A DNA stretch of 64,000 nucleotides. It comes from Chionoecetes opilio (taxonomy: Eukaryota; Arthropoda; Malacostraca; Decapoda; Majidae). This document shows, one piece after another, positions 734-37,280 of this stretch (position 1 is its first letter; each line of letters begins with the position of its first letter). The position numbers were made by a program, and so were the translations under genes. The notes under the pieces are model-generated. The model did not search any database. It had not been told where the DNA came from and saw only the letters and a program-made list of their open reading frames with translations. The stretch is from assembly GCA_016584305.1 (NCBI GenBank), contig JACEEZ010015176.1, positions 62,001 to 126,000 on the forward strand. Reading direction: 5' to 3'.

Positions 734-738
734 CTAGG
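734..738. repeat. Left target-site duplication of Copia (CTAGG)
   Basis: CTAGG lies directly before the 5' LTR and again directly after the 3' LTR at 37276-37280. A 5-bp duplication is the normal Copia integration signature, so both ends belong to one insertion 36.5 kb apart. Confidence 0.9.
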
Positions 739-887
739 TGTTGATGTGTGGAACAAGGGTGAACTCCTTTTTGAATATGGAGCGCTATGACGTCATGACA
801 TGACATCCCTGTCATGGCGGACCAGCTGATCGACGAATGGTCAACTGACGGCAGTTGATCCCCGGCGCCCGGTGAGTGAACACAACA
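739..887 (+). repeat. Copia 5' LTR (149 bp)
   Basis: Starts TGTTGATGTG and ends GAACACAACA, giving the canonical TG...CA ends. It matches the split 3' LTR (29350-29423 plus 37202-37275) apart from a T-run length change, GCGC versus GCCC, and GTCAAC versus GTCAGC. It should hold the element's promoter, but I cannot place a TATA box confidently. Confidence 0.9.
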
Positions 888-888
888 C

Positions 889-900
889 TGGTAGCAGAGC
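889..900 (+). other. Copia primer-binding site
   Basis: TGGTAGCAGAGC begins two bases after the LTR. It is complementary to the CCA-bearing 3' end of initiator methionine tRNA, the usual primer for Copia elements (established knowledge). Confidence 0.8.
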
Positions 901-914
901 GTAGTTACTGCACT

Positions 915-1191
915 ATGGCGTCGTCCAAGTGGCCCCCCAAGTTTGTTGATGAGTGGACTGTGGGCGTACGAGAATTGGAGGAAAGACATTGAAATATGGT
1001 GTGAACTGACGGATTTGAAGAAAGAGAAACAGGCGTTAGCCATCCATTTGTTTTTGGGTGGCCGGGCAAGACAAGCGTCGTCTGAGATGGACATGGTGGA
1101 TCTGAAAAAGGAAAATGGCGTGGATATTTTACTGGAGAAACTTGATGGCTTGTTTTTGGTGGATAAAGGCCGCCGACAATTTGCGGCATTC
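915..1191 (+). pseudogene. Copia gag, piece 1
   Basis: An ATG at 915 opens a short frame. After a one-base-scale frameshift near 960 the frame continues with the conserved Copia gag segment YENWRKDIEIWCELTDL, then LAIHLFLGGRARQASSEM and DGLFLVDKGRRQFAAFQ. It corresponds to the UBN2/copia-type gag N-terminal region that builds the particle. The frame is cut after AAFQ by the 1.3-kb element and resumes at 2494 with LYNF. Confidence 0.85.
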
Positions 1192-2493
1192 CAGGGCAGG
1201 GATGCTCGAAAATCCCTCGTAAGGGACAACTTATGAGTGTATGGCTACAATAACCTTACGAGGGTGGGCTGAGGGAGATGTTCGTATCGAGCAGTCACTC
1301 CCGTACGGTGATCGGTGGCCTCTGGGGGGGGAATATTAGGGATATGTGTGGGGAAATTCTGCTGACCAATCACAGAGCAGCGCCTCGCATGACGCGGCCT
1401 TATCTAGCCAATCATCATGCTGTCAGGGAGCCCGATAAATGAATTAAAAGACTTCAAATGCCGCTGTTGTGCTAAAATCGGCCTCTTTCGGAAATCGTCC
1501 CGCGGACGCTTATTTAACCTAAATAACTCTACAAAACTTAACACATACCTATCATAAACCTTACCTAACCTAAACATAACTTAAATATAACTTAACCTTA
1601 ACCTAAATACTATATTTTCCGGTGTTATGCTAAAATCGGCCAATTTTAGCACAACACCGCCAGAATGTTACGATAATACATAGCTGCCATATTAACCTTT
1701 CAGCGTAATATTCGCCCGCTGAATACTAGAGAGACGTACCCAGGGTATACCTTGATGCGCTGATCATAGGTTCGAGTCCTGCGTGCCCGAAATTAGCATC
1801 TATGGAGTATGGACCATTGCTGACCCGGCGTATCGAGACGTGCCGTATTCGTAGCCGCGGTGGTCTCTGTTATAGTGGACGAGAACTGCGCGTTCGCTCA
1901 TTAGGTCAGACAAGACGCACTGAGGGACTAACACTTCACTCTGACATACGTGACACTTGTGTACAAGGATAGTATAACTTTATAATATCCTTGCTTGTGT
2001 GTATACGTGCGTGTGTACTAGTACGTCAGACATTTGATACCACCACCACCGACCGCATCATTATAGCTGCCAAACTTGTATGATGAACTATACGTTTTGA
2101 TTCAAGAAGTCGACCGATATATATATTTAATATATTAGGTTTGCCCTAATATGAATTTATTACAAGTATAGGTATTGTATGTTAAATATGATATATATGG
2201 AGTCAATGAAGCAATAAACACATCACATGTCAAACAGGCAAGCATGAAATGGCTCTATAATACGCAATAAACAAAGTATAGTAATACAACTTGTAATTTA
2301 TTGTTTGTTGATCTCTAGCCGCTTCAAATTTCACTCCCTTAGGGAGTTAAGGGTGCTCCAGACCACCCTTAGCCTCGTGGTCCCGTACCAAGTGAGAAAA
2401 TGGTTTGAGCATCTCCCTTAGAGGCGCTACGAGGTAAAAGTCCCCTAGGGTAATACTTACGGGCCCGTAACTCTTTCGAGCATCTCCCCCCTG
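1192..2493 (+). mobile_element. 1.3-kb TIR element, copy 1 (inserted in Copia gag)
   Basis: Begins CAGGGCAGGGATGCTCGAAA and ends with the inverse ...TTTCGAGCATCT...CCCTG, giving ~20-bp imperfect terminal inverted repeats. Copies lie at 8963-10287 (inverted) and 21633-22905. The subterminal regions are themselves partly palindromic ('cctcgtaaggga', 'cttacgaggg'). It carries no transposase. It contains a pol III-type B box, GGTTCGAGTCC, at 1769-1779, but no convincing A box. The Copia gag frame resumes immediately afterwards. I found no clean target duplication, so the superfamily is open; the CAGGG start hints at hAT. Confidence 0.85.
1737..1790 (+). other. tRNA-like segment with B box inside the 1.3-kb element
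   Basis: GTACCCAGGGTATACC is followed by a perfect B box, GGTTCGAGTCC, and GCGTGCCCG. It looks like the 3' half of a tRNA or tRNA-derived sequence. It recurs inverted in copy 2 (near 9663-9720) and decayed in copy 3. It is not a functional tRNA because no cloverleaf 5' half is evident. Confidence 0.45.
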
Positions 2494-2563
2494 GAGTTAT
2501 ATAATTTTCGGAGGAGCAGTGATATGGAGATCAGGAAATTTGTGTCAGTGTTTGAAGTTTAAA
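2494..2563 (+). pseudogene. Copia gag, piece 2
   Basis: Encodes ELYNFRRSSDMEIRKFVSVFE, the direct continuation of the gag piece that stops at 1191. The next insertion follows VFE. The same TTTGAA codons occur at 2551-2556 and again at 11028-11033, where gag continues as FEHTYFKFNKQG. Confidence 0.8.
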
Positions 2564-2846
2564 CTAGGGTTGTGCGGTATCAAGAAAATACCGGTATTGC
2601 CGATACCAGTTTGTGGGAGTAATACCGGTACGTCCTCACACCGGTATCAATTACGATACCGGTATACCGATACCGTACAGTTATACCGGTATCGGTATTT
2701 GTTTTTTTCGTGTTTTTTTTTACTTGTCCATTCTCAGACAATTATTAACCTCTACAGCATCGCCCCCCCCTTAAATAAAGTTTCCTATAGCGTCGGCCAT
2801 TTCTTTTTTTACAATTATAAACCCCTACCGTGCAGCATAGGTAAAG

Positions 2847-3303
2847 CCGGTAAGGTAAAGATGGGAGCATATGCTTAGCTGGGCGTGGCATGCGGTGCTC
2901 ATCTCCATGGCATTAGCCCTTAGAGCCTGTGGTGGGTGAGAACCCGTTACCCCCGCACACAGGGCTAGTGTGACTCCCGGGTTACCACAGACCACAGTAC
3001 AGCATAAAGGTAAGGTAAAGATGGGAGCATACGCTAAGCTGCGCGTGGCATGCGGTGCTCATCTACGTGGCATTAGCCCTTAGAGCCTGTGGTGGGTGAG
3101 AACCCGTTACCCCGGGACACAGGGCTAGTGTGACTCCCGGGTTACCACAGTTACCTTCCCCAGGTTACCCCAGGTACCCATTTATCAACCCCGAAAGGAA
3201 GGAAGAACAGCTGGGTAGGCTGGTCACCGACTTGCCCTGGCCCGGGATCGAACCAGGGCCAGCAGATTTGTAGCCAGGCACGCTAGCCACTGCACCACGG
3301 AGG
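2847..3303 (-). repeat. tRNA-derived SINE-A with duplicated tail
   Basis: Read on the minus strand, the head has an A-box-like GTGGTGCAGTGGCTAGCG (about 3281-3299) and a B box, GGTTCGATCCC (3244-3254). A CCCAGGTACCCATTTAT-type body and a tail follow. The tail (TAAGGTAAAGATGGGAGCATA...GGTTACCACAG) is present twice, 2847-2993 and 3012-3151. Related copies lie at 595-695 and 37715-37882. Confidence 0.8.
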
Positions 3304-3575
3304 CGACGTACAGCATAGACCCCCCTAAAATAAAGTTTCCTGTGGTGTCGGCCATTGACAAATTTAAGGGGGGACCGAGTAAACTATGGCCTAGGCCCCG
3401 CACCCCAGAGGAAAAAATATGTTTTCAATGAAAATCTGAATGCTGGACATTTTTTATTTGCTCGAACACTGTTACATTGCATGTACCATAATATGCCACA
3501 AATTAGTACCAATGTAATGTAAAATATGGGTGGAAAAAGTTTCAATTAAACTAATATGAAATCTGAACCACATTT

Positions 3576-3955
3576 GGTAAAATTTTAGAGTCCTTTCCCG
3601 CCCTTATTAGTGGTTTTATTTTATCCAGACCTTCACAAATCCCTTCAGATACCTCTAAAACGTAATAATAAAGTGGGGGAGATTAAAAAATAAAAAATAA
3701 ATTACTAACCTAACCTAACCTAACTTGGTAAAATTGTAGTCCTTTCCCACCCTTATATCTCGTTAGGAGGTTATTGGTTAGGTTAGAAATTTTATTTTGG
3801 GGGCCAGGGCGGGGGTAATATAGGGGGGAGGGGGCGTTGAAGGGGGCATCTCTCCCCCACTTTATAATTACGTTTTAGAGGTATCTGAAGAGATCTGTGA
3901 AGGTCTGGAGAAAAAAGAAACTAATTAGGGCTGGAAAGGACTCTAGAATTTTACC
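3576..3955. mobile_element. Foldback MITE (TAGAGTCCTTTCCCGCCCTT arms)
   Basis: The left arm GGTAAAATTTTAGAGTCCTT and right arm AAAGGACTCTAGAATTTTACC are inverted, and the homology continues inward for about 110 bp. The centre contains short CCTAACCTAA tracts. The same arms bound 12841-13882. No coding capacity. Confidence 0.7.
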
Positions 3956-4240
3956 CCACATTTCATTCAGGGCCCCGCACTCCCACGTACCGGCCTATAT
4001 AGGGCCTCGCACACCGTAAATCCGCCCCTGGCGTCGGCCATCTCTTTTTTTTTTTAATTCGTAACCCTTGCCGTACAGCATAGACCCCCCTAACATAAAG
4101 TTTTATGTGGCGTAGGCCATTTTTTTATTTTTTTTTTACAATTCTTAACCCCTACCGTACAGCATAGACCCCCCTAAAATAAAATGTTATTTGGCGTAGG
4201 CCATTTCTTTTTTTGCATCAATAATCTAATATACTATAGG

Positions 4241-4486
4241 AGTAGCCGTGTGTGTGTGTGTGTGTGTGTACTGTGTGTGCATCTAAGTATGATGGTAGTA
4301 TCAGTATCTTTATTATTATCATTATGATCATTATCAATATTATTATTATTATTATTATTATAATTATTATTATCATTATTGTTATCAATATTATTGTTAG
4401 TATCACTATTATTGTTATGATTATTTTATCTGAGTTATTATTATTATTATTATAACTTATTATTATCATTAATACCATTGACATTA

Positions 4487-4521
<35 letters not shown>

Positions 4522-4742
4522 GTTGTTTTTATTATTATAATAATTTCATCATTTATTTTTAATTATTATTATTGTTATTATTTCAAAGGCGTAGAGCCGT
4601 AGACGGAGACACGTGAAACGCGAGTTCCTTCAAAATAGATGGTAAAGGTACGAGGGGTCAGTCTTATCTGAGGTGTGAACACACACACACACACATACAC
4701 AGTCACACACACACACACACACATATATATATACACACACAC
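4241..4742. repeat. Microsatellites: (GT)n, (ATT)n, (CA)n
   Basis: (TG)n at 4247-4275, an imperfect ATT/TTA tract at about 4303-4580, and (CA)n plus (TA)n at 4679-4742. Long open frames here (poly-Ile or poly-His/Thr) are artefacts of the repeats. Confidence 0.9.
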
Positions 4743-4935
4743 GGGTACTCCGTGGTGTAAGGGAAGCACGCTCGGTTCACAACCCGGGTTCGATCCCCGG
4801 GCAGAGCGGAAACAGATGGGTTGTTTCCTTAAAACCCGAGCCCCTGTCCACCCAGCAGTGAATGGGTACCGGGTGTTAGCTGGGGGTTTGTGACCTGCTC
4901 TCCTAGGTGATGGGCTGATGGGCAGATTTTCAGTG
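4743..4935 (+). repeat. tRNA-derived SINE-B
   Basis: The head CTCCGTGGTGTAAGGGAAGC resembles an A box and is followed by a perfect B box, GGTTCGATCCC, at 4787-4797. The body (cagagcggaaacagatgggttgtttcc...) is SINE-like and not tRNA. Preceded by a CA/TA microsatellite. Confidence 0.7.
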
Positions 4936-5195
4936 ATTGGTACCATGTGGAGGTACTAAACAAAAATGGTATATTATGAAAGCTTATTATGTCTACTTTC
5001 CATAACTGTTTGCTGGACACCTGTATCTTGTAGCTTTATATGTGTAATTTGCTTTCAAAGATGACTACCCCGCAGTGAAAATGCATCATTTTTGGCCTTT
5101 TTTAAAAATCACTTACAGAACAGCAATACAGTAAAACCCTTATAACTCGGCACTGTATAACTCGGAATTTGATATAACTCGGCATGGCAGACTAA

Positions 5196-5196
5196 T

Positions 5197-5276
<80 letters not shown>

Positions 5277-5311
5277 ACACCCACCCACACCCACACCCAC
5301 ACCCACACACC

Positions 5312-5358
<47 letters not shown>
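5196..5358. repeat. Poly-T followed by (CA)n/(CCCACA)n tract
   Basis: T(~38) at 5196-5234 is followed by about 120 bp of CA repeats interrupted by CCCA units. No coding meaning. Confidence 0.9.
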
Positions 5359-5361
<3 letters not shown>

Positions 5362-5365
5362 TGCC

Positions 5366-5690
5366 CATAGCACATGTAGGCAGTGAGCTCCAGGGGTGGA
5401 ATGATAGGCCCTGGAGGCTCACTCGAGGGCTGTGATGGTTGGCCCTCGCCCGTGGTGGCGCAGGCAGGATTGTTATAGTGACGCCTGTGATTAGAGGCTC
5501 ATGCCGCCCCGTGTCCTCCCATGCACTCACAGTCGAAGGTAGAGTTAATGGACAGGGCATGTGGGTGTTCTTAGGCCACTCGACGGTGCAAAAAGATTTC
5601 AAGTGGATTTATGGGTCTCACTCGGGATCGAACTCGGGTCTTCGAGAACGCCACTCGGTGACGCTAACCACTCTGCTACCGCCTCACCTA
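5366..5690 (-). repeat. tRNA-derived SINE-C, copy 1
   Basis: On the minus strand the head reads GAGGCGGTAGCAGAGTGG (A box, about 5665-5690) and has a B box, AGTTCGATCCC, at 5624-5634. The body is shared with copies at 38110-38368 and 46738-47076 ('ggccactcgacg', 'catgtgggtgttctta', 'ctcgcccgtggtggcgcaggc'). Confidence 0.85.
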
Positions 5691-5864
5691 AACTGCATCT
5701 CATGGTTTTCACTCGGCATATCATGCCCTCACAACCTCTTCTGTGAACATGTAAACAGAAAGTTGGCAAAAAATAATGTATCTCGGCATATTGATGTTAT
5801 AACTGCATCTCTTCGCTTACACTCTGCATATCGTCAGTCGCATAAAGTCGTATTTTTGTCCTTT

Positions 5865-6440
5865 TGATCTTTTCCTGCAAGCTCAGGCTCTTCAATTTCA
5901 TTCCCTTCCTGCTGGAGACACCCTTGCGTGATGGAGCTGACATCTTGAAATACAGTACTGTATGATGTAATCCCAAAACACGTAAAATAGGTGGCAAAGT
6001 AAAGCAAAGGTCGGGAACCAGCGTGTAGGCTGTCAGCTGCTGAGCCGTGTTTATGTCGTCAAAGCACCGTCTTGGACACGAATTCCGTTTTTTGTCGAAA
6101 TTGAAAAAGGATTGGTTTCTGCTTCAAAAACACAACAAGCTTGGTAGGAGCCGAAATAATAATCAATGCAAAACATTGCAAACAATATCACAGAGTAGTA
6201 TAACACACATTTCAGCAAGTGTTATTGGATTGGGTTTCGTAATCCAAGACGGTGCTTGGACGACAAAAACACGGCTCAGCCTACGCACTGGTTCCCGATC
6301 TTCATTTAATTTGCCACCTATTTTACGTGTTTTGGGATTACATCATACAGTACTGTATATCAAGATGTCAGCTCCATCACGCAAGGGTGTCTCCAGCAGG
6401 AAGGGAATGAAATTGAAGAGCCTGAGCCTGCAGGAAAAGG
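5865..6440. repeat. Inverted duplication of the transposase 5' region
   Basis: 5865-6090 is the reverse complement of 6238-6440. Both arms include the ATG and first codons of the HTH segment, 'cagtactgta', 'ttacgtgttttgggatt' and 'gcaccgtcttgg'. The loop is about 150 bp. Confidence 0.75.
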
Positions 6441-6540
6441 TGAAAGTGCTGGCAAGGATGGATGCAGGTGCGTCCATGTGTGCTATTTGTGCTGAGTTTG
6501 ATATCAAATCCAGCACATTCTACCCGTTCATTGGTAAGTG
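6365..6540 (+). pseudogene. pogo/Tigger transposase, N-terminal psq/CENP-B HTH fragment
   Basis: The ATG at 6365 opens MSAPSRKGVSSRKG followed by KSLSLQEKVKVLARMDAGAS and a putative second helix, CAEFDIKSSTFYPF. That layout is the psq-type helix-turn-helix at the front of CENP-B/pogo/Tigger transposases, which binds the element's ends. The Tigger HTH at 62650-62810 has the matching pattern (SLSIAQKVELLQKLDRGVS). The catalytic DDE region is missing here. Confidence 0.65.
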
Positions 6541-6813
6541 TAGTTTTTATGCTTTTACAGTACTGTATTTCCTTTTTTTTTTTTTTATTTATTATATAAC
6601 CCATATCAGAGGAGGACATTGAATAACTCGGCACATTGAATAACTCGGCAAGGGCCAGAGCCCCTATCGTGCCGAGTTATAAGGGTTTTACTGTACCTCC
6701 ATATATGATATTAATTATTATACAGAAAGCAGAGGAATATATATTTATATCATTGTTGTCAGCCACATAATATCTACAATATAATGTATGTTATGCCAAG
6801 TTGAATATTTGTC

Positions 6814-8731
6814 CTATTGATACAATAGGTCAGTGATTCCTATGCTACTGTGCAGTATTTTCTCTGCAGTATTTATTGTGGGTAAATAGCCCACCTTATC
6901 AACCTTTATGTTTGTATTGTTATTGGTTAGTATGTTGAAACCAGTCCATGAACATGTGCTTTGTGGGATCACTTTGCCGCACCAGCGACCATGCAAGGTT
7001 TTTGTTCTTGGCTAGCGTAGCTTCTGTCTGTGTATCTGCAGGATGAAGTGGGGCTATTGGAGGTGGACATTTCCTCTCACTGCAATCATAGTGAGACAGT
7101 ACAGGTTCTATTGTAGGGAGTGATCTTTTCTTGTCTTTCTGCACAGCTGTACGATGAGGTGGTGGAAGGGCAATAGAAACCTGTGGCTGAATGATTATTC
7201 CATTCACACGATGAGATGTCCCAGCACCACTTAGAGTTTCCTCTTGTCTGTCTATATTGTCATATGCCAGTACTGTTGGAACACCAACATGTGTTTGTGT
7301 TGGTAACAAAACACCAAGACCAGCTTGTTGTTCCAATTTCTGTAGACACAGTGCTGTATCTATTTCTTCAAGCTTTGAATATGATATGCCATGACCCAAA
7401 CGATTTAAGATTTTTATAAGCTCTACATTTCCAGTGAGGGTTTTCACAGCCCATGCCAACAAAATCTGCTTTGAACTTTTCATTTGACCCAATGTCACTC
7501 CATATATGAGATCTTGACAAAGTGACTAGACCACTTTTTTTACACGAGCTGCTGGAGTAGTTTCAAAGTCTCTAGTTCCAGTGAGAAGAGTAGTCATGAA
7601 CAACTTTAAGGGCTTTGGTATGTTTACATATTGTTCATTGAGCTCATCAGGATGTGGCGGCCATGGCTGCTCATACTGTTCAGTTTTTATGAGTTTTCGC
7701 AGATGTATTGCCGTTTTTGACAATGAATGTTCCATGCTCTGCTCATCAGATGAATACAGCTCAAGTTTTTCCTTCACTGCCATGTAATCTCTGGCTAGTT
7801 GCTCAAAGGTCAGATTGTCAGGGCTGATCAGCAGTCTGTTGTTGTTACCATGAAAGATGTTGAGACATGGTCCAAATTCTGCTTCAAGTTTGCGTCGTAC
7901 GTGTTTCTTGGTATGCATCTTGATGTTTGTCACTCCTTCAGCATTCATATATGATACCAACTTTTCTGTTAAGTCAGTCATCTGTGATATATGGGGCTTC
8001 GCAATTAACTCCTGTCTGATATGATCAAAAAGTTGCTGGTAAGCATATGATTCAGAGGCTGTATATGCTTCATCTTCCTCGTTGTCTTTGTTCCCAGCCA
8101 TTTGTTGAGGTCTTTGTTGTGTGTATTCAAGATAGCAAGATTTATGGTAGTGTGCTTCAGCAGCCACTATCTCACGTGATGTCATGGCCAGGATATGTTG
8201 ATCAATACTTCTCTGACCTTCAGACCGTTCTTGAGTCAAGTATCTGCAGGCAGCTTCTCGTATAGTCTTGTCTGCTCGTAACTCAACTGATTGAGTCAAT
8301 TTTTCACGACTAAGGCTCCTTTTTGCATATTTTGAGTCCTTGTCACAAAATATACATTTTGCAGGATATGTGCGTGACTTGCTACTTCCAGCCTCTCGCT
8401 GAGTTCGTTTCTATTCAGTGTTCAATTGCTCAGGAAGGTGAGTTTTAGTTTCTAGTTTGCTCAAAGATTTCCTGTGTGTGAATCCATTTCGACATGATGT
8501 TTCATAATATATGTCTGGCATCTCCTCAGATTGTGTATCAAGTTCAAGTATTGGACCATATCTTCTAATTTTAGCTGCATTAACAAGTGTCTTCCATGAC
8601 TCAAGGTCCTTTGGTCTGGTTAAGTTATTGAGTGGTACCTGTTTGTTACACAGTATGCAGAGGGCAGTCTCCATTTTTTTATGTTTTTCCGATGGTCCCA
8701 AGAGTGGATCGTAATCCTCATCAGAAGCCAT
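6814..8731 (-). pseudogene. Orphan repeat-associated ORF (unassigned family), two in-frame TAG stops
   Basis: From the ATG at 8731 one frame runs to about 6960, interrupted only by TAG at 8411-8413 and TAG at 7526-7528, and shifts frame near 6960 to end at 6814. That is about 640 codons. The N-terminal part has paired cysteines (CILCNKQ; KCIFCDKD beyond the first stop) and HYHKSCYLEY, suggesting zinc binding. Downstream are VKTLTGNVELIKILNRLGHG, EEIDTALCLQKL and LAYDNIDRQEETLSG. I recognise these as blocks that recur in many unnamed invertebrate repeat proteins, but I cannot name the function. A transposase or transposon-accessory protein is possible. The 3' end looks truncated at AT-rich DNA before the pogo-like element. 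Confidence 0.6.
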
Positions 8732-8962
8732 ATTTCTTAATCAGATCTCTGAAATTAGAGAAAAATAATATTATATTCTCTGATTGAAAGTATTTACTTA
8801 CCTCATCACAATAACTTGTTCACATGTATCAGTTAAATGATTTACATAATCAATTTCGCACTTTTTATGGTACAATGAACATATAAACTTAAAATCACTG
8901 TACAGGACAAAAGCTACCCCATTGGAATGTCCAGCAAGCATTTTTGGTAATGGTTCACCATT

Positions 8963-10287
8963 CTGGGCAGAGATGCTCGAAAGAGTTACGGGCCCGTAAG
9001 TACTCCCCTAAGGGACTTTTACCTCGTAGCGCCTCTAAGGGAGATGCTCAAACCATTTTTTCACTTGCTACGGGACCGCGAGGCTAAGGGTGGTCGGGAG
9101 CACCCTTAACTCCCTAAGGGAGTGAAATTTGAAGTGGCTAGACGTCAACAAACAATACATTACAAGTTGTATCACTATACTTTATGTTTATTGTGTATTA
9201 TAGTCATTTCATGCTTGCCTGTTTGAAATGTGATGTGTTTATTGCTTCATTGACTCCATATATATCATATTTAACATACAATACCTATAGTACTTGTAAT
9301 AAATTCATATCAGGGCAAACCTATATATTAAATATATATATCGGTCGACTTCTTGAATCAAAACGTACAGTTCATCATACACGTTTGGCAGCTATAATGA
9401 TGCGGTGGTGGTGGTGGTATCAAATTTCTGACGTACTAGTACACACGCACGTATACACACAAGCAAGGATATTATAAAGTTATACTATCCTTGCACACAA
9501 GTGTCACGTGTGTCACAGTGAGGTGTTAGCCCCCCCCCGTGTCTTGTCTGACCTAAAGAGCGAACGCGCAGTTCTTGTCCACTATAACAGAGTACCGCCA
9601 GGGCCACGGATACGGCATACGTACGGCGCTGGCCAGCAGTGGTCTATAGATACTATTTTCGGGCACGCGAGACTCGAACCTATGATCAGCGCATCAAGGT
9701 ATACCCTGGGTACGTCTCTGTAGTAATCAGTGGGAGAATATTACGCTGAAAGGCTAATGTGGCAGCTGTATTATCGTAACATTCTGGCGATAGTGAGCTA
9801 AAATCGGCCCTATTTCGGAAAAAAGCCTATCTTAGCTCAACACCGGCAAACATAGTGTTTAGGTTAAGTTATGTTTAGGTCTGGTTTAGGTTAGGTAAGG
9901 TTTATGATAGGTTTGTGTTAAGTGTTGTAGAGTTATTTAGGTTAAATAAGCGTCCGCGGGACGATTTCTCGAAAGAGGCCGATTTTAGCATAACAGCGGC
10001 ATTTGAAGTCTCTTTAAATTTATTTATCGGCCTCCCTGACAGCTGAGAGCATGATGATTGGCTAGATAAGGCCGCGTCATGAAGGGCGCTGCTCTGTGAT
10101 TGGTTAGCAGAATTTTCCCACACATATCCCTAGAATATCCCTATATTCCCCACCCAGAGGCCACCGATAACCGTACGGGAGTGACGGCTCGGTACGAGCA
10201 TCTCCCTCAGCCCACCCTCGTAAGGTTATTGTAGCCATACACTCGTAAGTTGTCCCTTACGAGGGATTTTCGAGCATCCCTGCCCTG
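8963..10287 (-). mobile_element. 1.3-kb TIR element, copy 2 (inverted)
   Basis: Close reverse complement of 1192-2493 across its whole length, including CTCGTAAGTTGTCCC at the end, the 'gaccaatcacagagcag' core and the B-box segment. It lies inside the 8.5-kb element, so it is a separate insertion from copy 1. No clean target duplication. Confidence 0.85.
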
Positions 10288-28673: not shown

Positions 28674-29133
28674 CTTTTCAGATGCCTCGTTTGCCAACTT
28701 AGCGGGCAATGGGTCACAAGTAGGTTTTGCTATATTCTTACGGGACAATGGTGGGAAGAGATGTCCCGTTTACTGGCAGTCAAAGAAGATCAAGAGAGTT
28801 GTTAAATCCACCCTGTCCGCTGAGGCCCTGGCGCTGTTGGAGTGTGCTGAGACAGCAGTGTATCTGGCTAAGCTTCTGCATGAAATCTCCAACTGTGGGA
28901 TTCTTAAGATAAGGTGTTTCACAGATAACAAGAGCCTGGTAGATGCTCTTCACTCGTGTCGGTGTGTAGAAGATAGGAGACTGCGGATTGACATTGCTGT
29001 GTTATGTGATATGTTGGAGCGTGGAGAGGTTACCGAAGTGGCTTGGGTGGATAAGTCTGGACAACTAGCTGATTGCCTCACCAAGAAGGGGGCATCAACC
29101 GAGCGACTGCGAGCTGCAGTCGGTCGGAACTAG
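28674..29133 (+). pseudogene. Copia RNase H, piece 8
   Basis: Reads FSDASFANLAGN (first catalytic Asp), STLSAEALALLECAE (Glu) and RCFTDNKSLVDAL (Asp), ending QLADCLTKKG and a TAG at 29131. This is the typical Copia RNase H tail that degrades the RNA template during cDNA synthesis. A frameshift occurs near 28790 (SKKIKRVVKS). Otherwise it is well preserved. Confidence 0.88.
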
Positions 29134-29327
29134 AATAGCTGTCCAGGGGGAAGAAGCTATGTATTGGGATACTTATTTCGAAGAAAGTGGAAGAAGCAGC
29201 TATGTATTTGGATACATATTCGTGGTCCTTCCCAAGAACTGGGAAGAAGAACCTATGTATTTGGATACATATTTTGTGGTCCTTCACAAGCACTGGGAAG
29301 AAGAGAAGAAGGACGGAAGTGTTGTCA
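29134..29327 (+). repeat. Copia 3' untranslated repeats
   Basis: 'ctatgtatttggatacatattcgtggtccttc' occurs about three times in tandem with variation, between the RNase H stop and the polypurine tract. Confidence 0.7.
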
Positions 29328-29349
29328 ACTAAGAAGAGAAGGACGAGAG
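29328..29349 (+). other. Copia polypurine tract
   Basis: AAGAAGAGAAGGACGAGAG lies directly before the 3' LTR, where plus-strand priming occurs in LTR elements. Confidence 0.7.
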
Positions 29350-29423: not shown

Positions 29424-29431
29424 TCATCCAC

Positions 29432-30036
29432 TGTCGCCACTGTTAGTGCCGCGTTCTTGCTAAGCACCTTTTGCCATGCACGTTGGTCATGCATGGGTTG
29501 GAATAATCAGTCGGTTATCTTTCTTGGTTTTAATAAAGGATAACAAAGTACTTTCATTCACTTGTAGTATTCAGGGACTCTCACTTTCACTCTGTGTTCA
29601 CTCGCGTGTAGAATGTTCAATGTCTCTCACTCTGTCTCTCGTGTTCACTCTGTCTCACGGATGTTTGAATCGTGAGGTGGCCTCGCACACTCAGTCACGT
29701 GTGTGTCTTTCGTGGACCAAAAGTTATCTGCCCAAAAAGTGAGAGTCTTTTCACAACTAACCTATGAACATGACATCACGTCACGTCACGTTTTGGAGCT
29801 ACCAATAAGAGACAAGACATACACTGTCCTCCCTTTCTCTTCAGCCAATCATGAAAGGCAAGGAAAGGCTGAATTTACACTTTTCGTTATCTAAACCTAA
29901 ATCTTTGTTTTGACAAGCAGGAAGAATTATCGGTTTTACAAGAATTCTGGCGTACATTTTCTCGCTCTCTCTCTCGCTAATAAATCAATCTAGCTAACTT
30001 ATTTCTATCCTTATTCAGACTAAAACACCTATTACA
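29432..30036 (-). repeat. Gypsy 3' LTR
   Basis: On the minus strand it begins TGTAATAGGTGTTTTAG and ends GGCACTAACAGTGGCGACA. About 605 bp; matches 36618-37201. Confidence 0.9.
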
Positions 30037-30838
30037 GGGCTCGGCAGGCTACCGCTTGTCGTCCCGACAAGACTTCTGTTTTCACTAATTTGCGAGCAAT
30101 GCATGATGAAATATTTCTATCTTAATTCATATTTCCTGACTGAATCTAAATGCAGTTATCATTCTATCATATTATACCATCTAAGTAATTAATTATGTTA
30201 CGTTGCTTGATAAAACCTATGACAGGGTTCGGGTCATGAAGAACATGTTTGTGTGATGATGCAACTTGATGTGTAGTGGCTTCTTGTACATAAAGAACAT
30301 TTCTAGGAATCCAATAAGTAATGATAATTAGTAGTACAATTAACAGGATGTACCAATTTGACTGTTAAGCTATTCTTTTCCACCAGTATTCTGTCCTTGA
30401 TTTATGTCAGGGTGTCTCAATTGTAGATAATCTTTTCTATTTCCAAGGGGATTCACACAGATTGGTTAACAACAATCAAAATTTCTACCTTCCTAACTAA
30501 GGCTCTGGGCCTCACAGGGTCCCAGGCCGGTGTTAGGCATCCTAACAAAATTCATGTCAACAACCTCAGGTTTTCTGTAAAAGGAGTTACAATCTACACC
30601 TAGTTCCAATAACAATTAATTTACATATGCTTCAAATTCGTCTTGTAAGAGAATTTCTGTTACGTTACAAACTAACATAACTTGGTTGGAATCCTTTTCA
30701 CTAAATTCCTTGCAATAGCTGTGCAATTTCTTTCTGTACTCATGTGTTTCATTTGTGTCATTTAACATGTCTACATTACTATTTGGTGTACTTATGTTTG
30801 TTTCTTCTATTGAATTTTCAGGTGACCTTTCTACGTCA
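30037..30838 (-). other. Gypsy region between integrase and 3' LTR
   Basis: No open frame of note; the position where some Gypsy elements carry env. I see no transmembrane or cysteine-rich coding segment, so an env gene is absent or lost. Confidence 0.55.
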
Positions 30839-31939
30839 TTATGTGTTGTCTATCTGTGTCTCTCTAGTCATATTTGTTTTCTTAAGGTGATCTGCATGTT
30901 TGATTATTTCCTCTCCCGAGTCTAGAGATTGAATCTTGAACTTGTTTCCTCCTGCACTTGCAATTATTTTATAAGGACCTTTAAACTTGGGTGATAACTT
31001 ATTACTGTGGGCAATAGGTACATGGAGTTTTGCCATTACTAAATCTCCATGTCGTAACTTTACATCGCGTGCCGTTTTATGTTGCTGTTTCTGCATTTCC
31101 TCTGAGTATTCTTTCATGTGGCTTCTTACTCTCTGGTGAATGACTTGAAATTTGTGTAATCTATTTGCCACGTAATCATCCTGATTATACACAGGCTTGG
31201 GTTCTGCATCTAAGAGTTCATATGGAAGAACTTTATCTTCCCCAAACAATATGTAATGTGACGTTTCTCCGGTGGCTGAGTTTATCTGGGAGTTCAGTGC
31301 ACATTTGACATGTGGGATCCACGTATCCCATGCCATACTGTACGGATCAATTAGACTCCTCAAACAGGTTATTACTTTGCGATTCAGTCTTTCTACTACT
31401 CCATTACTCTGAGGTCTATAGGCTTGTACATTTATTTTCTTGATGTTAAATAATTTACATAGTCCTTCTAGTATCTGCTTGTTGAACTCTGTACCGTTGT
31501 CTGACACAATTACCTTTGGTGTCGTGAAATTGCAAATTATTTGCTCGAATATTATTGATGCGACCGTTTCAGCCTTTTTATTATTCATGGGCTGTATGAT
31601 GCAATATCGGGAAAAATAGTCGATGGCGACTAGCAAGTATTTGTATCCATTTTCTGACAGTGGAAGCTCGAGTGTATCGATGTGAACTCTTTCCCATGGT
31701 TTCTGGGGTATAGGGTACGTTAGCATTGGTGCTGGGGAACGCGTGTTACCCTTCACTTCGGCGCAAATCGTGCAGTTATCTACGTGGAAATATATGTCTT
31801 TTCTCATGCCGGGCCAGAAGTACTTTAGTTGTGCTTGCTTGTAAGTCTTATCTTTTCCGGGGTGTCCGCTGTGGGCACTGTTATGGAGCATCTTTAATAC
31901 TTCTGGGACTAGTGTCTGAGGGATTACTAATTGTTTCAC
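30839..31939 (-). CDS. Gypsy integrase
   Basis: 366 codons open. The N-terminal HHCC zinc domain has H19, H23, C56 and C59. The core triad is D88 (HIDTLEL), D147 (VSDNGTEF) and E183 (NGVVERLNR), giving the D-x35-E spacing that marks active retroviral-type integrases. Near the C-terminus KLSPKFKGPYKI is a GPY/F module; no chromodomain follows. The product joins element cDNA to host DNA. In the original polyprotein this follows RNase H. A frameshift near 31900 now separates it, so the ATG here is not the natural start. Confidence 0.88.
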   Translation of the reverse strand: MKQLVIPQTLVPEVLKMLHNSAHSGHPGKDKTYKQAQLKYFWPGMRKDIYFHVDNCTICAEVKGNTRSPAPMLTYPIPQKPWERVHIDTLELPLSENGYKYLLVAIDYFSRYCIIQPMNNKKAETVASIIFEQIICNFTTPKVIVSDNGTEFNKQILEGLCKLFNIKKINVQAYRPQSNGVVERLNRKVITCLRSLIDPYSMAWDTWIPHVKCALNSQINSATGETSHYILFGEDKVLPYELLDAEPKPVYNQDDYVANRLHKFQVIHQRVRSHMKEYSEEMQKQQHKTARDVKLRHGDLVMAKLHVPIAHSNKLSPKFKGPYKIIASAGGNKFKIQSLDSGEEIIKHADHLKKTNMTRETQIDNT

Positions 31940-32768
31940 TATACCTCGTGTTACGTCTGCATACTATTTCTGCGTTTCTGTATAATAATTCCTTGCATAT
32001 TTCGAAATAGTTTATCTTGTATTTAGCGGGTAGTTGTGGTTCTTGACTACCTGTCGGGTCTGTTAGGTACGTTACTACTGTGCTCCACATGGCATCCTTT
32101 TCCAGTTCTGTGCTGACTAGGTCTGTATCTAGTGTGATTAATTCTTCAATACTACATATTGAGGTCATTACCTCTGTTTCTGGGCTAATGTTCCTCGAGA
32201 ATGCGTCTGCGGCTACGTTTTTCTTTCCTGGTATGTATTCAAAACTGACTTCGTAATTCTGTAACGTCGTGAACCATCTGGCGAGTCTGCCTCTGAGGTT
32301 TTTGTGCTTGAACAGGTTCTGTATTGCCGTGTGATCAGTCCACACTCTTATCTTGTAACCTAGCAATGTGTCTCTAAATTTTTCTAGACAGTATATTACT
32401 GCTAAAGTCTCACATTCTGTGATGTTGTAATTCTTTTCTGCGGTTGTGCATAGTCTAGATGCATAAGCTATCGGTTGGAACGTTCCCTTTCTTTCCTGCA
32501 TTAATATTCCTCCTAGCCCTATATCTGAGGCGTCGGTGCATAGGATAAATTCCTTCGTGTAATCTGGGAAGATTAGTACTGGTGAATTGGTTAGTTTTGA
32601 TTTGAGCGTTTCAAATGCTTGCTCTTGAGCGTGTCCCCAAGTAAAAGTCTGATTATTTTTCAATAGTGTGTTTAGGGGTTGTGCTATATCGGCGTATCCC
32701 TTTATAAAGATTCTATAGTAACCTGTTAGACCAAGGAAACTTCTTCCTTTCTCAACTGTGGTTGGCAC
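31881..32768 (-). pseudogene. Gypsy RT end and RNase H
   Basis: Opens with RSFLGLTGYYRIFIKGYADI, the RT connection region. RNase H then carries FILCTDASDIGLGGIL (Asp), NITECETLAVIYCLEKF (Glu) and VWTDHTAIQNL (Asp). ADAFSRN follows, the usual end of RNase H. The frame shifts just before the integrase segment (VCRRNTRYSET versus the integrase frame). It removes template RNA during reverse transcription. Confidence 0.85.
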
Positions 32769-33493
32769 TGGGAAATTTCTTACGGCGTCGAGTTTGGACG
32801 GTACTGTTCTTAATCCATGTTTATCTATTTGGTGTCCTAGGTAAGTAACCTTGTCTTGTAGGAAAACATTTCTCTATTTTCACTTTCAATCCGGCTGATG
32901 CTAGCCTAGAGAAAACCAAGTCTAGTTTCTTAAAATGTTCCTCTGCCGTCTGCGATACTATTGAGTATGTCATCTAGGAATACACTTGCTGTGTTTCCTA
33001 TAAGCCCTTGCAATACTGTGTTCATCAGTCTCATGTACGTTAATGGACTGTTGGATAATCCAAATGGCATGCGTTTAAATCTGTAGTGTCCAGTCGGTGT
33101 GGAAAAAGCTGTCATGTCTTTAGATTCATCTTGCATTTCTATCTGCCAGAAGGCTGACTTTATGTCTATTGTGCTGAATAGTTTATTTTCTGTTCCTAGA
33201 CTGCGAAGAATGTCAGAGATTACTGGTAATGGTAGACAATCTGGGATAGTGCGTTTGTTTAACTCCCTGTAGTCGATGACTGGGCGTACTGAACCGTCTG
33301 ACTTTGGTACTAGGATAAGAGGAAAGTTCCACTCACTATCACTAGGTTCAATCACATCTTGTGTGAGCATTTCACTGATCAATTGATTTACTGTGGCGAG
33401 CTTTGAATACGGCAATCTATATGCTGGTATATAAATCGGCTGTGTACCTGATTTTAATTTTATTTGATGTTTCAAAACGTCAGTCTTTCCCAA
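32769..33493 (-). pseudogene. Gypsy reverse transcriptase
   Basis: The readable part includes QDVIEPSDSEWNFPLILVPK, RPVIDYRELNK, LFSTIDIKSAFWQIEM (catalytic Asp) and FKRMPFGLSNSP. It ends SVFLDDILNS, where the FLDD box holds the catalytic pair. A one-base loss just after it (near 32945) ends the frame, and another shift is needed before 32768. Same polyprotein as the neighbouring segments. Confidence 0.87.
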
Positions 33494-33547
33494 AGCGTCC
33501 CCTGGTAAGGCTATTGCGTGCTCGTGTTTCGTTAACAGTGATAAGAG

Positions 33548-33916
33548 TTAGTGCTCTAAATCAGGTGGGCTGGTAGGTTTAAGGTGGTTGAGGAGATCTC
33601 TCCCAACCTCTACATCTTTTTGGACTGAGCAGACGAATGGGTCAGTTGCATTATCTGAGTTCTGGGTTTCATTTACTATTTTAATTGGGTGTTTACAGAC
33701 TTGGAATGATCCTATCTGGGTTCCAGGTTTCAAAGTGATGTTCTTATTCAGTGTACTCATTACTAAAACTTCTAATTTCCCATTCTCTGATTTATAAACA
33801 GCAGAATCAAGTTGTGTTCCTCTTACTCTAATGGATTCTGGCATTGTAAATACTTCTGTATCCTGCTTTAATCCTTTTAACTCCAGTGTTACCTTGTTAA
33901 TTGACATGGCATGCAA
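33548..33916 (-). pseudogene. Gypsy protease-RT linker segment
   Basis: 122 codons reading MHAMSINKVTLELKG... to SPPDLEH. It lies between protease and RT and has no catalytic motif I recognise; many Gypsy polyproteins have such a conserved spacer. Separated from the RT frame by a stop and shift around 33540. Confidence 0.65.
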
Positions 33917-33952
33917 TAGCGTATCACATGTCCTGAAATAATTCTCATGGCT

Positions 33953-34716
33953 TCATCTGGGTCTGTCTGTAACTTGTTCCTTTGATACTGTCTCAGTGCA
34001 TTTACTAACTTGTGTTACCTTTTCATGCCTGGTATTAGGCTTTTTGCTTGTCTTTGGTGTGACTTCACTACTCATCTGTTCCGGTGCAGTGTGTAGGAGT
34101 TCAGGGACCTTGAGAAGTAATTTTTCCTTTCTCTTGGACTTATCAGTAGCCTTTGATCGCTCTGCCACGCTATCGGGGGTTTTAATAGCATAATTAGTAT
34201 TCGTATTTAGCACGCCTATACCGGGTTCTGGATTCAGAAATGGGATGAATTTGTATGAACAGTGAACACCACGGTCTGGTGGAGATACTGTGATCTCTTG
34301 CTCGCGCATTGTAGCAAATCCTATTAACAAATCTCCAGGGAAAAATGGTTTGTCTACCACCATCGCGGTTATAGTGAAATCAAAATAATCTCCTAATGTA
34401 GCAGTGACTTGAGTTTTTCTAACTGTACGTAATTTTTCGCCTGTCACGCCTTGCAGTGTGTATGGCACTGGCTCAATAAACTTAACACCTGGTCTTACTT
34501 TATTTAAGACGTCAAGACTTATTATGTTCACCATGGATCCTGTGTCTAGGAAAATCTGAGTGGGCGTGTGGTAAACTTTGCCTTCAATCAATGGGCCTTC
34601 AGTGTGCTTGTTTATCGGGATTATCAGTTTTGTTTCTCTTTCTACATTCTCTAAGTCTTCAGTTTGTCGGTTCTTTTGACTTATTTGAAGAGTAGTGTTC
34701 CCTTCCTTGTGTTTAC
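33953..34716 (-). pseudogene. Gypsy aspartic protease
   Basis: The frame is open upstream of the first ATG (34591), reading from about 34716 with LIIPINKHTEGPL. The active site is IFLDTGSMVNIIS. A basic, Ser/Thr/Lys-rich tail follows. The protease cuts the Gag-Pol polyprotein into mature proteins. The frame differs from the zinc-knuckle frame that ends at 34717, so a ribosomal frameshift or a mutation links them. Confidence 0.8.
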
Positions 34717-35121
34717 CTACGAAGGGGGTCCTGTACGAAAATTTTGAGCTCGAAGACTGTTAGCTCGCCGTGCGTGACAATCTCTGGTTTTGTGTCCTAT
34801 GTATTTGTGGTAGCTACACCAAGGTTCCTGGTAGCAATTTCTTTCGGTGTGTCCGGTATATTGACAATTACCGCAAGATGTTGAATTGTAACAATCCATC
34901 GCGACGTGGCCCGGTCGTCCACACTGATAACATTCAACTTGAGGAGGGCGTTGCCATGAGACGTTGCGAGGTCTGTTTTCTGTTGGGCCTCCACTATGTG
35001 ATAAAGACCTACTGTAACGTGTTCCCGAGTTACTAGCCTGTGGCGGTGGAGTGTGGGTTGATCGTATCGGCATCACATACGAGTCGTGTCGAGGATTTGT
35101 CTCGGCATATCCTCTTAGCAT
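34717..35121 (-). CDS. Gypsy nucleocapsid (zinc knuckles)
   Basis: Encodes two canonical CX2CX4HX4C knuckles, CYQCGRPGHVAMDC and CGNCQYTGHTERNC, and a variant third, CSYHKYIGHKTRDC, where the second Cys is His. They bind element RNA during packaging. The basic, Pro/Ser-rich lead RPRNVSWQRPP is typical. The frame overlaps the upstream gag frame by seven bases in another frame, so the natural start is in gag, not at this ATG. Confidence 0.82.
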   Translation of the reverse strand: MLRGYAETNPRHDSYVMPIRSTHTPPPQASNSGTRYSRSLSHSGGPTENRPRNVSWQRPPQVECYQCGRPGHVAMDCYNSTSCGNCQYTGHTERNCYQEPWCSYHKYIGHKTRDCHARRANSLRAQNFRTGPPS

Positions 35122-35705
35122 GCAATCAATTCTCCTAAGGACTGTGTTTCCTTCAAATCCTTGTACAGCCTTTCGCTTGTAACGTCATCACAATCACTTA
35201 AAATTTTCGAGAACATGATTAATTTAGATACTAGTGTTACTGACATGTGGTCACCGTCCAGTGGCAGTGTCCACTCGGAGGCCCTGAGCAGTTTCTCCAT
35301 ATCCTTTCCCCACAGATCAAGCTTTGCAACATACTCTGTAACTAGTTGTGAGGCTGGACGTTTAAGTGCAAGCATTTTAACCATAGCCCGGAGGGGGTCT
35401 TGGTCACTTTTCTTCGAGAAGTGCCGTCTGAACACCTGAACATAAGCGTTGTAATCATCTAGCTCTTCTAATTGTCTGTAACAGATAACATGCCTTGCCC
35501 TGCCGTTTTCGGCGTCTACATGTTGTTTAAGCACTTCTATCTTCAATCTTTCTGAGGTAAGTTTCTTATTTGCAATCAGGGTGTCCACTCTAAGCAGGAA
35601 TTGATTTATTTCAATCGTGTTCGCATCCCCAGAAAACTTAGGTACTCCGGCAGCAGAGGTAATAATCTCATGTCTAACAATCCTTCCTTGTTCTTCATCC
35701 CCCAT
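35115..35705 (-). CDS. Gypsy gag capsid region
   Basis: 196 codons from MGDEEQGRIVRHEI. The segment GVPKFSGDANTIEINQFLLRVD resembles the retrotransposon gag N-terminal pattern, followed by a helix-rich capsid-like stretch. It would form the particle shell. The ATG at 35705 fits the first good start after the leader. The frame ends at LGELIAC just where the zinc-knuckle frame begins. Confidence 0.75.
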   Translation of the reverse strand: MGDEEQGRIVRHEIITSAAGVPKFSGDANTIEINQFLLRVDTLIANKKLTSERLKIEVLKQHVDAENGRARHVICYRQLEELDDYNAYVQVFRRHFSKKSDQDPLRAMVKMLALKRPASQLVTEYVAKLDLWGKDMEKLLRASEWTLPLDGDHMSVTLVSKLIMFSKILSDCDDVTSERLYKDLKETQSLGELIAC

Positions 35706-36617
35706 GTTTATTTGTATTTGTCTTTAATGTAGCCTACGATATGATCTAGTGACTACTGGACTCTTTCTTAGCTGTCTTTTTTGAACTCTTGAGGTCGGTG
35801 ACATTTACAGAATATTAAGACTTCATACCTGGCTGGACTGATGACGAGGAGAGAGAGCAGAGGTAATATTTAAAACCTTGTGGTCTGGGATGGGTGTGGG
35901 TGGCGTCGGCGAGGGGACATACAGACACACAACACAACACCTTTCTTCGTATATCAGGATCTCCTGTTAATTAGAGAGGAATTAGTTCTACAATATCAAT
36001 ATATAGATAACACGTGACTTAAAAGGAAGGTATTATACTTCACAGGAGGGTATTGTGGTTGATTGAAGTTCTCGTGGAGCGGCGACGAAGGGTAGCGGGT
36101 GATGTCGAACTGCCTTTCAGAGTAACACTGGGTGTGTGTCACTGGTCAGGATGGTAGGAATTTTGGGGTCGGGCTGGCAGCGAAGGATGTCGTGACGGGA
36201 CTTTTTGTTTGCTTGTGTTTTACTTCGGCTTGTGTTACTTCGTTTCTTCTGTCTTCTTTCCTGCTTCTGGTTTTCTTGCTTGTGCTTTTCTTGTGTCTTC
36301 TTTCTTCTTAGTGCGTGCCGGTTTCTTTCTAAGGCGTGAAAGGAGGCGAGTGAGGAATGCGAGTGTGTGAGTGTGTGTAGGTAGGTTGGCGCGGGGTGTC
36401 GTGTAGGCCTATAGCTGGCGGTGTAGGTAGGTATGAGCTGGCTGCGAGGGTTGGCACGGTGAGTCACGTACGGAGTGATGTGGTGACTGTCGTTGATTTT
36501 CTTCTATTTCTTCTTGTTGCTAGCTTTTCTTGGTTTTCTTATGTTTTCCAGTCTCTTTGGAGTTATTATACGTGGTTTCAGATCCTTTTCGCAACCATCC
36601 ACTGTTACTGGCACCAC
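35706..36617 (-). other. Gypsy 5' leader and primer-binding site
   Basis: Untranslated region between the 5' LTR and gag. Directly after the LTR on the minus strand is TGGTGCCAGTAAC (about 36604-36616), a plausible primer-binding site complementary to a CCA-ended tRNA; I cannot name the isoacceptor. The Lys/Arg/Gln-rich frame at 36117-36467 has no known motif. Confidence 0.6.
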
Positions 36618-37201
36618 TGTCGCCACTGTTAGTGCCGCGTTCTTGCTAAGCACTGTTTGCCATGCACGTTGGTCATGCATGGGTTGGAATAATCAGTCTG
36701 TTATCTTTCTTGGTTTTAATAAAGGATAACAAAGTACTTTCATTCACTTGCAGTATTCAGGGACTCTCACTTTCACTCTGTGTTCCTCGCGTGTAGAATG
36801 TTCAATGTCTCTCACTCTGTCTTACGGATGTTTGAATCGTGAGGTGGCCTCGCACACTCGGTCACGTGTGTGTCTTTCGTGGACCAAAAGTTATCTGCCC
36901 AAAAAGTGAGTCTTTTCACAACTAACCTATGAACATGACGTCACGTCACGTCACGTTTTGGAGCTACCAATAAGAGACAAGACATACACTGTCCTCCCTT
37001 TCTCTTCAGCCAATCATGAAAGGAAAGGAAAGGCTGAATTTACACTTTTCGTTATCTAAACCTTAATCTTTGTTTTGACAAGCAGGAAGAATTATCGGTT
37101 TTACAAGAATTCTGGTGTACATTTTCTCGCTCTCTCTCTCGCTAATAAATCAATCTAGCTAACTTATTTCTATCCTTATTCAGACTAAAACACCTATTAC
37201 A
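36618..37201 (-). repeat. Gypsy 5' LTR
   Basis: Direct copy of 29432-30036, slightly shorter through a deletion of about 13 bp in a 'ctctcactctgtctc' stretch. Ends TGTAAT/GCGACA on the minus strand. Confidence 0.9.
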
Positions 37202-37275
37202 ATGGCGGACCAGCTGATCGACGAATGGTCAGCTGACGGCAGTTGATCCCCGGCGCCCGGTGAGTGAACACAACA
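37202..37275 (+). repeat. Copia 3' LTR, right part
   Basis: ATGGCGGACCAGCTGATC to GAACACAACA, identical to the end of the 5' LTR except for one base (GTCAGC for GTCAAC). CTAGG follows. Confidence 0.88.
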
Positions 37276-37280
37276 CTAGG

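What the first reader, a model, noticed from the sequence alone, without database searches (positions are those of the whole stretch)
734..37280. A complete Copia retrotransposon can be traced through a 36.5-kb nest
LTRs, a CTAGG duplication, the primer site and nine collinear coding pieces identify one insertion whose own length is about 4.8 kb. Each break is filled by a different element, and in most cases coding resumes at the exact residue. Deepest line: Copia > pogo-type P1 > CCCAGCAAACAT element > foldback > hAT MITE, five levels.
Basis: partly seen in the sequence, partly recalled or inferred. Interest (0 to 1): 0.88.

Follow-up and report, generated by a model that had tools for sequence, protein, structure and literature searches.

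The report
Crustacean retrotransposon shattered by nested insertions
One small jumping element in a large, probably crustacean, genome has been cut into nine pieces by other jumping elements landing inside it and by one self-copied patch; it is a clear but ordinary kind of genome debris.

Summary
A Copia LTR retrotransposon lies in nine collinear pieces at 734-37280. It has 149-bp LTRs (the 3' one split), CTAGG on both sides and a tRNA-Met-type primer site. Contig C211 repeats the nest up to about 27.15 kb; contig C228 repeats the right-hand junction at 99.4%. Corrections: (1) the gag and protease/pre-integrase breaks hold the same 1.3-kb family, so the breaks are not all filled by different elements; (2) the integrase break holds no element but a 359-bp copy of the Copia's own RNase H plus the edge of the MITE lodged there, with 9 bp lost; (3) the window is poorly assembled at about 13-20 and 21-23 kb, so frameshifts there are not safe biology; (4) five levels are supported, but level four (foldback) only by its arms. 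The element is GalEa-like in the features tested, two of them intact only in relatives; clade placement was not tested. New member of a known kind.

The parts
734..738 (+). target-site duplication CTAGG, left
   Evidence: also left of the 5' LTR on contig C211
739..887 (+). Copia 5' LTR (149 bp, TG...CA)
   Evidence: L031 LTR match
889..900 (+). primer binding site TGGTAGCAGAGC
   Evidence: identical to the PBS given for CoRex1 and GalEa1 in PMC3587641 (passages)
915..1195 (+). gag piece A (last 5 bases = CCAGG duplication)
   Evidence: tblastn to P0168 at 937-1194, 72%; L031
1196..2489 (+). insert 1: 1.3-kb TIR transposon family (TIR GCAGRGATGCTCGAAA), copy a, 5-bp duplication CCAGG / CCTGG (imperfect)
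   Evidence: L003, L006 and L008 read ...CCAGGAGTT... without it
2490..2561 (+). gag piece B
   Evidence: P0168 93-113; L031 1795-1861
2562..11025 (+). insert 2 (limits approximate): element with ends CTAGGGTTGTGC.../...GCACATCCCTAG, carrying further elements; duplication about TTTGAA (6-8 bp)
3576..3955 (.). foldback family copy inside insert 2
8967..10283 (-). second copy of the 1.3-kb family, inside insert 2
11026..11686 (+). gag/nucleocapsid piece C up to the protease start
   Evidence: L031 1856-2518; TA at 11685-11686
11687..21351 (+). insert 3: P1, pogo-type TIR element (CWGGGAGGTCCCG, TA duplication), itself split
   Evidence: sister copies near 49145-49924, 51888-52734, 58301-59087, 56470-57041
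12279..21187 (+). CCCAGCAAACAT element inside P1 (mostly low-accuracy sequence)
   Evidence: the three sister P1 copies printed read GTCAACCAA|ATCCCCC uninterrupted; TIR; right end clean on C211
12835..13886 (.). foldback element inside the CCCAGCAAACAT element
   Evidence: arms 12836-12921 / 13805-13885, 79%
12961..13446 (+). hAT-type MITE inside the foldback, 8-bp duplication CCTGCCCC
   Evidence: read from the sequence
21352..21634 (+). protease piece (low-accuracy stretch)
   Evidence: L031 2512-2815, 75.6%; no protein match
21635..22902 (+). insert 4: third copy of the 1.3-kb family, duplication CCAGG (clean on C211)
22903..23216 (+). pre-integrase piece (low-accuracy stretch)
   Evidence: L031 2820-3137, 84%; best 50-residue stretch 80% to P0196 on C211
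23217..25556 (+). insert 5: TIR element (CACTGATCTATATAACATGGA), 8-bp duplication GTTAGCAT
25557..26264 (+). integrase piece
   Evidence: rve PF00665 E 3.5e-11; 91.8% to P0196; L031 97.0%
26265..26629 (+). self-copy: 26265-26623 copies 27951-28305 (RNase H plus first 159 bp of the MITE), then an extra ATTGTA
26630..28146 (+). integrase C-terminus, reverse transcriptase, start of RNase H (frameshifted); template at 27951-28305
   Evidence: RVT_2 PF07727 E 4.2e-18; L031 92.8%
28147..28673 (+). insert 6: hAT-type MITE, 8-bp duplication CTTTTCAG
28674..29349 (+). RNase H end (stop 29131-29133) and 3' untranslated part
   Evidence: 92.8% to P0196; L031
29350..29423 (+). 3' LTR, left half
29424..37201 (-). 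insert 7: Ty3/gypsy element with own LTRs (29428-30036, 36614-37201)
   Evidence: capsid and protease (both under the Pfam cut-off), zf-CCHC, RVT_1, RNase H, H2C2 and rve domains in order on the minus strand
37202..37275 (+). 3' LTR, right half
37276..37280 (+). target-site duplication CTAGG, right
   Evidence: same junction on contig C228

Best explanation
A single GalEa-like Copia retrotransposon inserted at CTAGG and was then interrupted eight times. Seven breaks are insertions: two copies of one 1.3-kb CCAGG-targeting TIR family, a CTAGGG-ended element, the pogo-type element P1, an 8-bp-duplicating TIR element, a hAT-type MITE and a Ty3/gypsy element in the 3' LTR. Several of these were struck again, down to five levels. 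The eighth break, in the integrase, is most likely a repair scar: 9 bp were lost and a 359-bp copy of the element's own RNase H with the MITE's edge was pasted in, so it postdates the MITE. Shown: order, boundaries, most target duplications, copies free of the inserts. Inferred: that a double-strand break was repaired by templated synthesis, the exact sequence of events, and that the broken element is now inert as a whole.
For: CTAGG on both sides and LTRs with 2 mismatches and 2 gaps in 149 aligned columns. A natural copy, L031, 4,764 bp with GAGAT on both sides, holds the nine pieces in order, neighbours touching or within 9 bp. Five further copies (L032-L036), none matching over the whole length, have their pieces abutting in the same order. 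Straight sequence at the break sites in relatives that cover them. Same order on C211 up to about 27.15 kb, nearly identical at 8.5-12.0 kb and 25.5-27.15 kb. Right junction repeated on C228 at 99.4%. P1 empty site in three sister copies. The RNase H/MITE junction was found 3 times in the assembly at up to 2 mismatches: window 26447, window 28133 and the C211 self-copy.
Against: C211 leaves the nest inside the Copia: its 3' LTR is whole and followed by GATAG, without MITE or gypsy, and its right flank matches the window's only in dispersed repeats. I read this as a misjoin at a repeat; real ectopic recombination is not excluded. The gypsy insert has no clean target duplication. Self-copy and template differ at 17 of 350 bases, against 2 of 149 for the Copia LTRs (Fisher p 0.07) and 10 of 588 for the gypsy LTRs (p 0.008), more than expected for a late patch. 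The integrase search listed 147 hits, a lower bound; only seven other copies were examined in detail.
Confidence: 0.93

Rival explanations
1. The pieces are remnants of two or more Copia insertions, or of a recombinant between Copia copies, not of one insertion.
For: Copia copies are common here (147 integrase hits), and C211 shows a switch to another copy at about 27.15 kb.
Against: CTAGG on both outer sides; each piece occurs once and in order apart from the self-copy; right junction repeated on C228.
Confidence: 0.05
2. The nest is an assembly artefact made of collapsed repeats.
For: Window and C211 disagree by about 10-40% per 500-bp bin at 12.4-25.1 kb; homopolymers are inflated in the window at 13-20 and 21-23 kb.
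Against: The order is the same on C211; junctions carry target duplications or empty sites.
Confidence: 0.03
3. The integrase patch was not made by repair in this copy but by template switching during reverse transcription, or was inherited from a parent element that already had MITE and patch.
For: Patch and template differ by 17 of 350 while the LTRs differ by 2 of 149, as if the patch predated the insertion; another copy (L037) has its own RNase H duplication.
Against: The RNase H/MITE junction was found nowhere else in the assembly at up to 2 mismatches, so no parent or sister was seen; a copy in a poorly assembled or missing stretch could have been overlooked.
Confidence: 0.25

Closest known systems
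GalEa-like Copia elements of crustaceans (GalEa1, CoRex1, CoRex2; PMC3587641, passages read)
   Same: Same PBS TGGTAGCAGAGC, short TG...CA LTRs (133 and 217 bp in the CoRex elements, 149 here), 4.8-4.9 kb, CX2CX4HX4C gag knuckle (in L031), integrase before RT, nearest named crustacean proteins from Petrolisthes and krill.
   Different: This copy is broken into nine pieces; LTR termini are TGTTG...AACA, while CoRex1 and CoRex2 have TGTTA...TATCA; RT phylogeny not tested.
Nested transposable-element clusters, as known from maize and other large genomes (recalled)
   Same: Younger elements sit inside older ones; target duplications and sister copies give the order.
   Different: Mostly DNA transposons rather than LTR elements do the nesting here, and one break is a self-copied patch.
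Templated insertions at repaired double-strand breaks, such as those of polymerase-theta end joining (recalled)
   Same: Small deletion at the break, copied insert from nearby, short junction duplication.
   Different: 359 bp is long for such inserts as recalled; the copy diverges from its template; the enzyme is unknown.

Membership tests
GalEa-like Copia | PBS TGGTAGCAGAGC | tested here: met
   window 889-900; paper passage
GalEa-like Copia | short LTRs bounded by TG...CA, element about 4.9 kb | tested here: met
   149 bp; natural copy 4,764 bp; CoRex1 217 bp and 4,949 bp, CoRex2 133 bp and 4,875 bp
GalEa-like Copia | gag zinc knuckle CX2CX4HX4C | tested here: met
   CMICDSRFHWVRYC in L031; the window copy gave no match to the motif
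GalEa-like Copia | PR-IN-RT-RH order, DD35E, TRPDI | tested here: met
   order and DD35E; the window reads TLPDI, relatives P0168 and P0194 read TRPDI
GalEa-like Copia | falls in the GalEa clade on an RT/RH tree | not tested
   no reference GalEa1, Zeco1 or outgroup sequences were at hand
Ty3/gypsy (insert 7) | RT before integrase, LTR pair, gag CCHC | tested here: met
   LTR pair; capsid and protease matches lie under the Pfam cut-off
Ty3/gypsy (insert 7) | 4-6 bp target duplication (criterion recalled) | tested here: inconclusive
   no clean duplication seen
pogo/Tigger (P1) | TA duplication and CAGGG-type TIR (criteria recalled) | tested here: met
pogo/Tigger (P1) | own transposase | not tested
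   P1 sister copies in the window are under 0.9 kb; a pogo-type transposase at 61147-62863 was not linked to P1
hAT (insert 6 and the deepest MITE) | 8-bp target duplication and CAG-type TIR (criteria recalled) | tested here: met
   CTTTTCAG, CCTGCCCC

The most novel reading that the evidence does not exclude
The integrase break is a fossil of self-templated, possibly low-fidelity, double-strand-break repair: the retrotransposon was patched with a 359-bp copy of its own downstream RNase H, carrying the edge of a transposon lodged there, and the patch differs from its template by about 5%, more than either LTR pair in the nest.
Probability: 0.4. Interest if true: 0.45.

Novelty: new member of a known kind. 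Interest (0 to 1): 0.33.

Why it matters
The nest is a readable record of which element families moved and roughly in what order in a large, probably decapod, genome. The self-copied patch shows that a break inside a transposon can be filled from the element itself, which insertion-only models of nests would misread as another insert. It also warns that apparent frameshifts in such nests can come from unpolished assembly: against the same six relatives the same Copia scores 76-80% in the protease piece and 96-97% in the integrase piece. The 1.3-kb family with a CCWGG target preference may deserve its own study.

Tried and rejected
Considered and rejected: that C211 is a clean second allele lacking the MITE and gypsy. 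Its 3' flank is GATAG, not CTAGG; its right flank shares only dispersed repeats with the window's side over the stretches compared (two stretches above 300 bp and 94%); and mismatches start abruptly at about 27.15 kb. So its 'empty sites' downstream belong to another copy and were not used as evidence; C228 shows the window's right junction with the gypsy LTR. Considered and disfavoured: that the MITE in RNase H is inherited by a Copia subfamily (3 junctions found in the assembly, the nest and its C211 copy). An early guess that the 1.3-kb family is hAT with 8-bp duplications was dropped: the duplication is 5 bp, CCAGG. A control that failed to decide: P1's right part is about 80% identical to its sister copies in the window while its left part is 95% to the closest of them, but on C211 the right part is also only about 82%. 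Scans of viral contigs (1 stretch) and prokaryote genome contigs (19 stretches) confirmed no relatives. Left open because the genome search stayed busy: the other end of the GATAG copy, genome-wide searches with the left flank and with 28672-29350, and a count of CCWGG-prefixed ends.
Full report
Setting. The window is bases 62001-126000 of a 193-kb contig (C11697) in an unnamed assembly of 1.94 Gb and 20,818 contigs. Among the named relatives of its Copia integrase in the listed hits, the closest are from the porcelain crab Petrolisthes cinctipes (74-79% over 37-49% of the query); next come a record labelled Bacteroidota MAG (66%, possibly contamination) and the krill Meganyctiphanes norvegica (64%). 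A crustacean, probably a decapod, is likely; the species is not known to me.

The Copia. CTAGG stands at 734-738 and 37276-37280. The 5' LTR is 739-887. The 3' LTR is 29350-29423 plus 37202-37275, interrupted by a Ty3/gypsy element. Two mismatches and two gaps in 149 aligned columns, a flanking base or two included, separate the LTRs. The primer site TGGTAGCAGAGC at 889-900 is the one reported for CoRex1 and GalEa1 (PMC3587641, passages). Protein searches place gag, pre-integrase, integrase, RT and RNase H in order on the plus strand; the protease piece is placed by DNA alignment only. One database protein, P0196, is 77-93% identical across the integrase, RT and RNase H pieces; its matches in the pre-integrase piece are two short fragments.

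The decisive comparison. I did not do that (see referred steps). Instead I compared the pieces, kept apart, with natural copies in the same genome. On contig C15373 a copy without these inserts runs from LTR to LTR over 4,764 bp with GAGAT on both sides, and the nine window pieces align to it in order, neighbours touching or within 9 bp. Of six copies fetched for this (L031-L036), only this one matches over both LTRs; the other five are partial, but their pieces abut in the same order. A seventh, L037, is collinear apart from an internal deletion and a roughly 340-bp RNase H duplication. Relatives that cover a break read straight through it: at the first gag break L003, L006 and L008; at the integrase patch site L003-L008, L005 being a few bases short there.

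The breaks. (1) gag, 1196-2489: 1.3-kb TIR family, CCAGG site. (2) gag, about 2562-11025: element ending CTAGGG, duplication about TTTGAA. (3) protease, 11687-21351: P1, TA duplication. (4) protease/pre-integrase, 21635-22902: the same 1.3-kb family, CCAGG. (5) integrase, 23217-25556: TIR element, 8-bp GTTAGCAT, clean on C211. (6) integrase, 26265-26629: self-copy. (7) RNase H, 28147-28673: hAT-type MITE, CTTTTCAG. (8) 3' LTR, 29424-37201: gypsy, no clean duplication. So the statement that each break holds a different element is wrong for breaks 1, 4 and 6.

The self-copy. Bases 26265-26623 repeat 27951-28305: the start of RNase H and the first 159 bp of the MITE. Relatives read GAGTGGCAC-GGTCCTGGC-ATTGTAATTGG or close to it; here the middle 9 bp are gone, the copy sits in their place, and ATTGTA is doubled. 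The junction of RNase H with the MITE was found three times in the assembly at up to two mismatches: template, copy, and the copy on C211. So the most likely template is this element's own MITE-bearing RNase H, and the patch is younger than the MITE. The two differ at 17 of 350 bases, against 10 of 588 for the gypsy LTRs (p 0.008) and 2 of 149 for the Copia LTRs (p 0.07). This is unexplained: an early patch, low-fidelity synthesis, or a lost parent element are possible.

Depth. P1 in Copia: TA duplication and relatives without it. CCCAGCAAACAT element in P1: the three sister copies printed read through the site; the right TIR is clean on C211. Foldback in that element: inverted arms 12836-12921 and 13805-13885 at 79%, and a family copy at 3576-3955, but no duplication or empty site was established. 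MITE between the arms: ends CAGTGGCGTCACC and GACGCACTG with CCTGCCCC on both sides. Five levels are supported; the fourth is the weakest.

Assembly quality. Contig C211 carries the same left flank and nest. Mismatch is 0-0.4% per 500-bp bin at 8.5-12.0 kb and 0-0.8% at 25.5-27.0 kb, 0.8-4.7% in the first 8.5 kb, but about 10-40% at 12.4-25.1 kb. In the window 15-35% of bases lie in homopolymers of four or more at 13-20 and 21-23 kb, against 3-20% in the matching C211 bins; near 12.3-13 kb C211 is the poor one, and at 20-21 and 23-25 kb neither stands out, so which contig errs there is open. Controls for the window being wrong at 21-23 kb: the third copy of the 1.3-kb family is 83% identical to the second copy in the window but 94% on C211; protease (76-80%) and pre-integrase (83-86%) score below integrase (96-97%) against the same six relatives. 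A control that does not decide: P1's right part is about 80% to its sister copies in the window, but also only about 82% on C211. C211 leaves the nest at about 27.15 kb into another Copia copy with a different flank. C228 supports the window's right junction at 99.4%. I take C211 as misjoined there; real recombination is not excluded.

Verdict. The finding is right in substance and gets an independent test. It is an example of a known phenomenon in a known element group, with one unusual scar. In print, I searched for GalEa and copia, nested decapod elements, CCWGG and CCAGG target duplications and Petrolisthes assemblies. Apart from passages of PMC3587641 I saw search listings only; no listed title describes this nest.

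Noticed in passing
1196-2489, 8967-10283, 21635-22902; genome-wide: A TIR family (GCAGRGATGCTCGAAA, 1,383 exact ends in the assembly) prefers CCWGG: in 17 end pairs that I picked from the places listed (spans 1.3-4.4 kb), 21 of 34 ends abut CCWGG, 8 of 17 have identical flanking 5-mers (one of them CCTTG) and 7 of 17 have CCWGG on both sides. No transposase was sought; superfamily unknown to me.
   Followed up: partly
12300-25300: Window and contig C211 disagree by about 10-40%; the window's homopolymers are inflated at 13-20 and 21-23 kb, so frameshifts there are not safe to read as biology.
   Followed up: yes
contig C211 against window about 27150: C211 switches from the nest to another Copia copy with an unrelated flank; probable misjoin, possible ectopic recombination.
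   Followed up: partly
L037 (C19672:132500-142000), 4013-6037: Another Copia copy with an internal deletion and a roughly 340-bp RNase H duplication of its own.
   Followed up: no
37287 onward: The Copia's right flank is itself a common repeat: many of the listed genome hits begin at query positions 5-7, so the Copia landed beside the end of another element.
   Followed up: no
61147-62863: Broken pogo-type transposase (CENP-B_N, HTH_Tnp_Tc5, DDE_1); whether it serves P1 was not tested.
   Followed up: no
6920-8731: Three minus-strand open frames inside insert 2 without a Pfam match at E 0.01.
   Followed up: no
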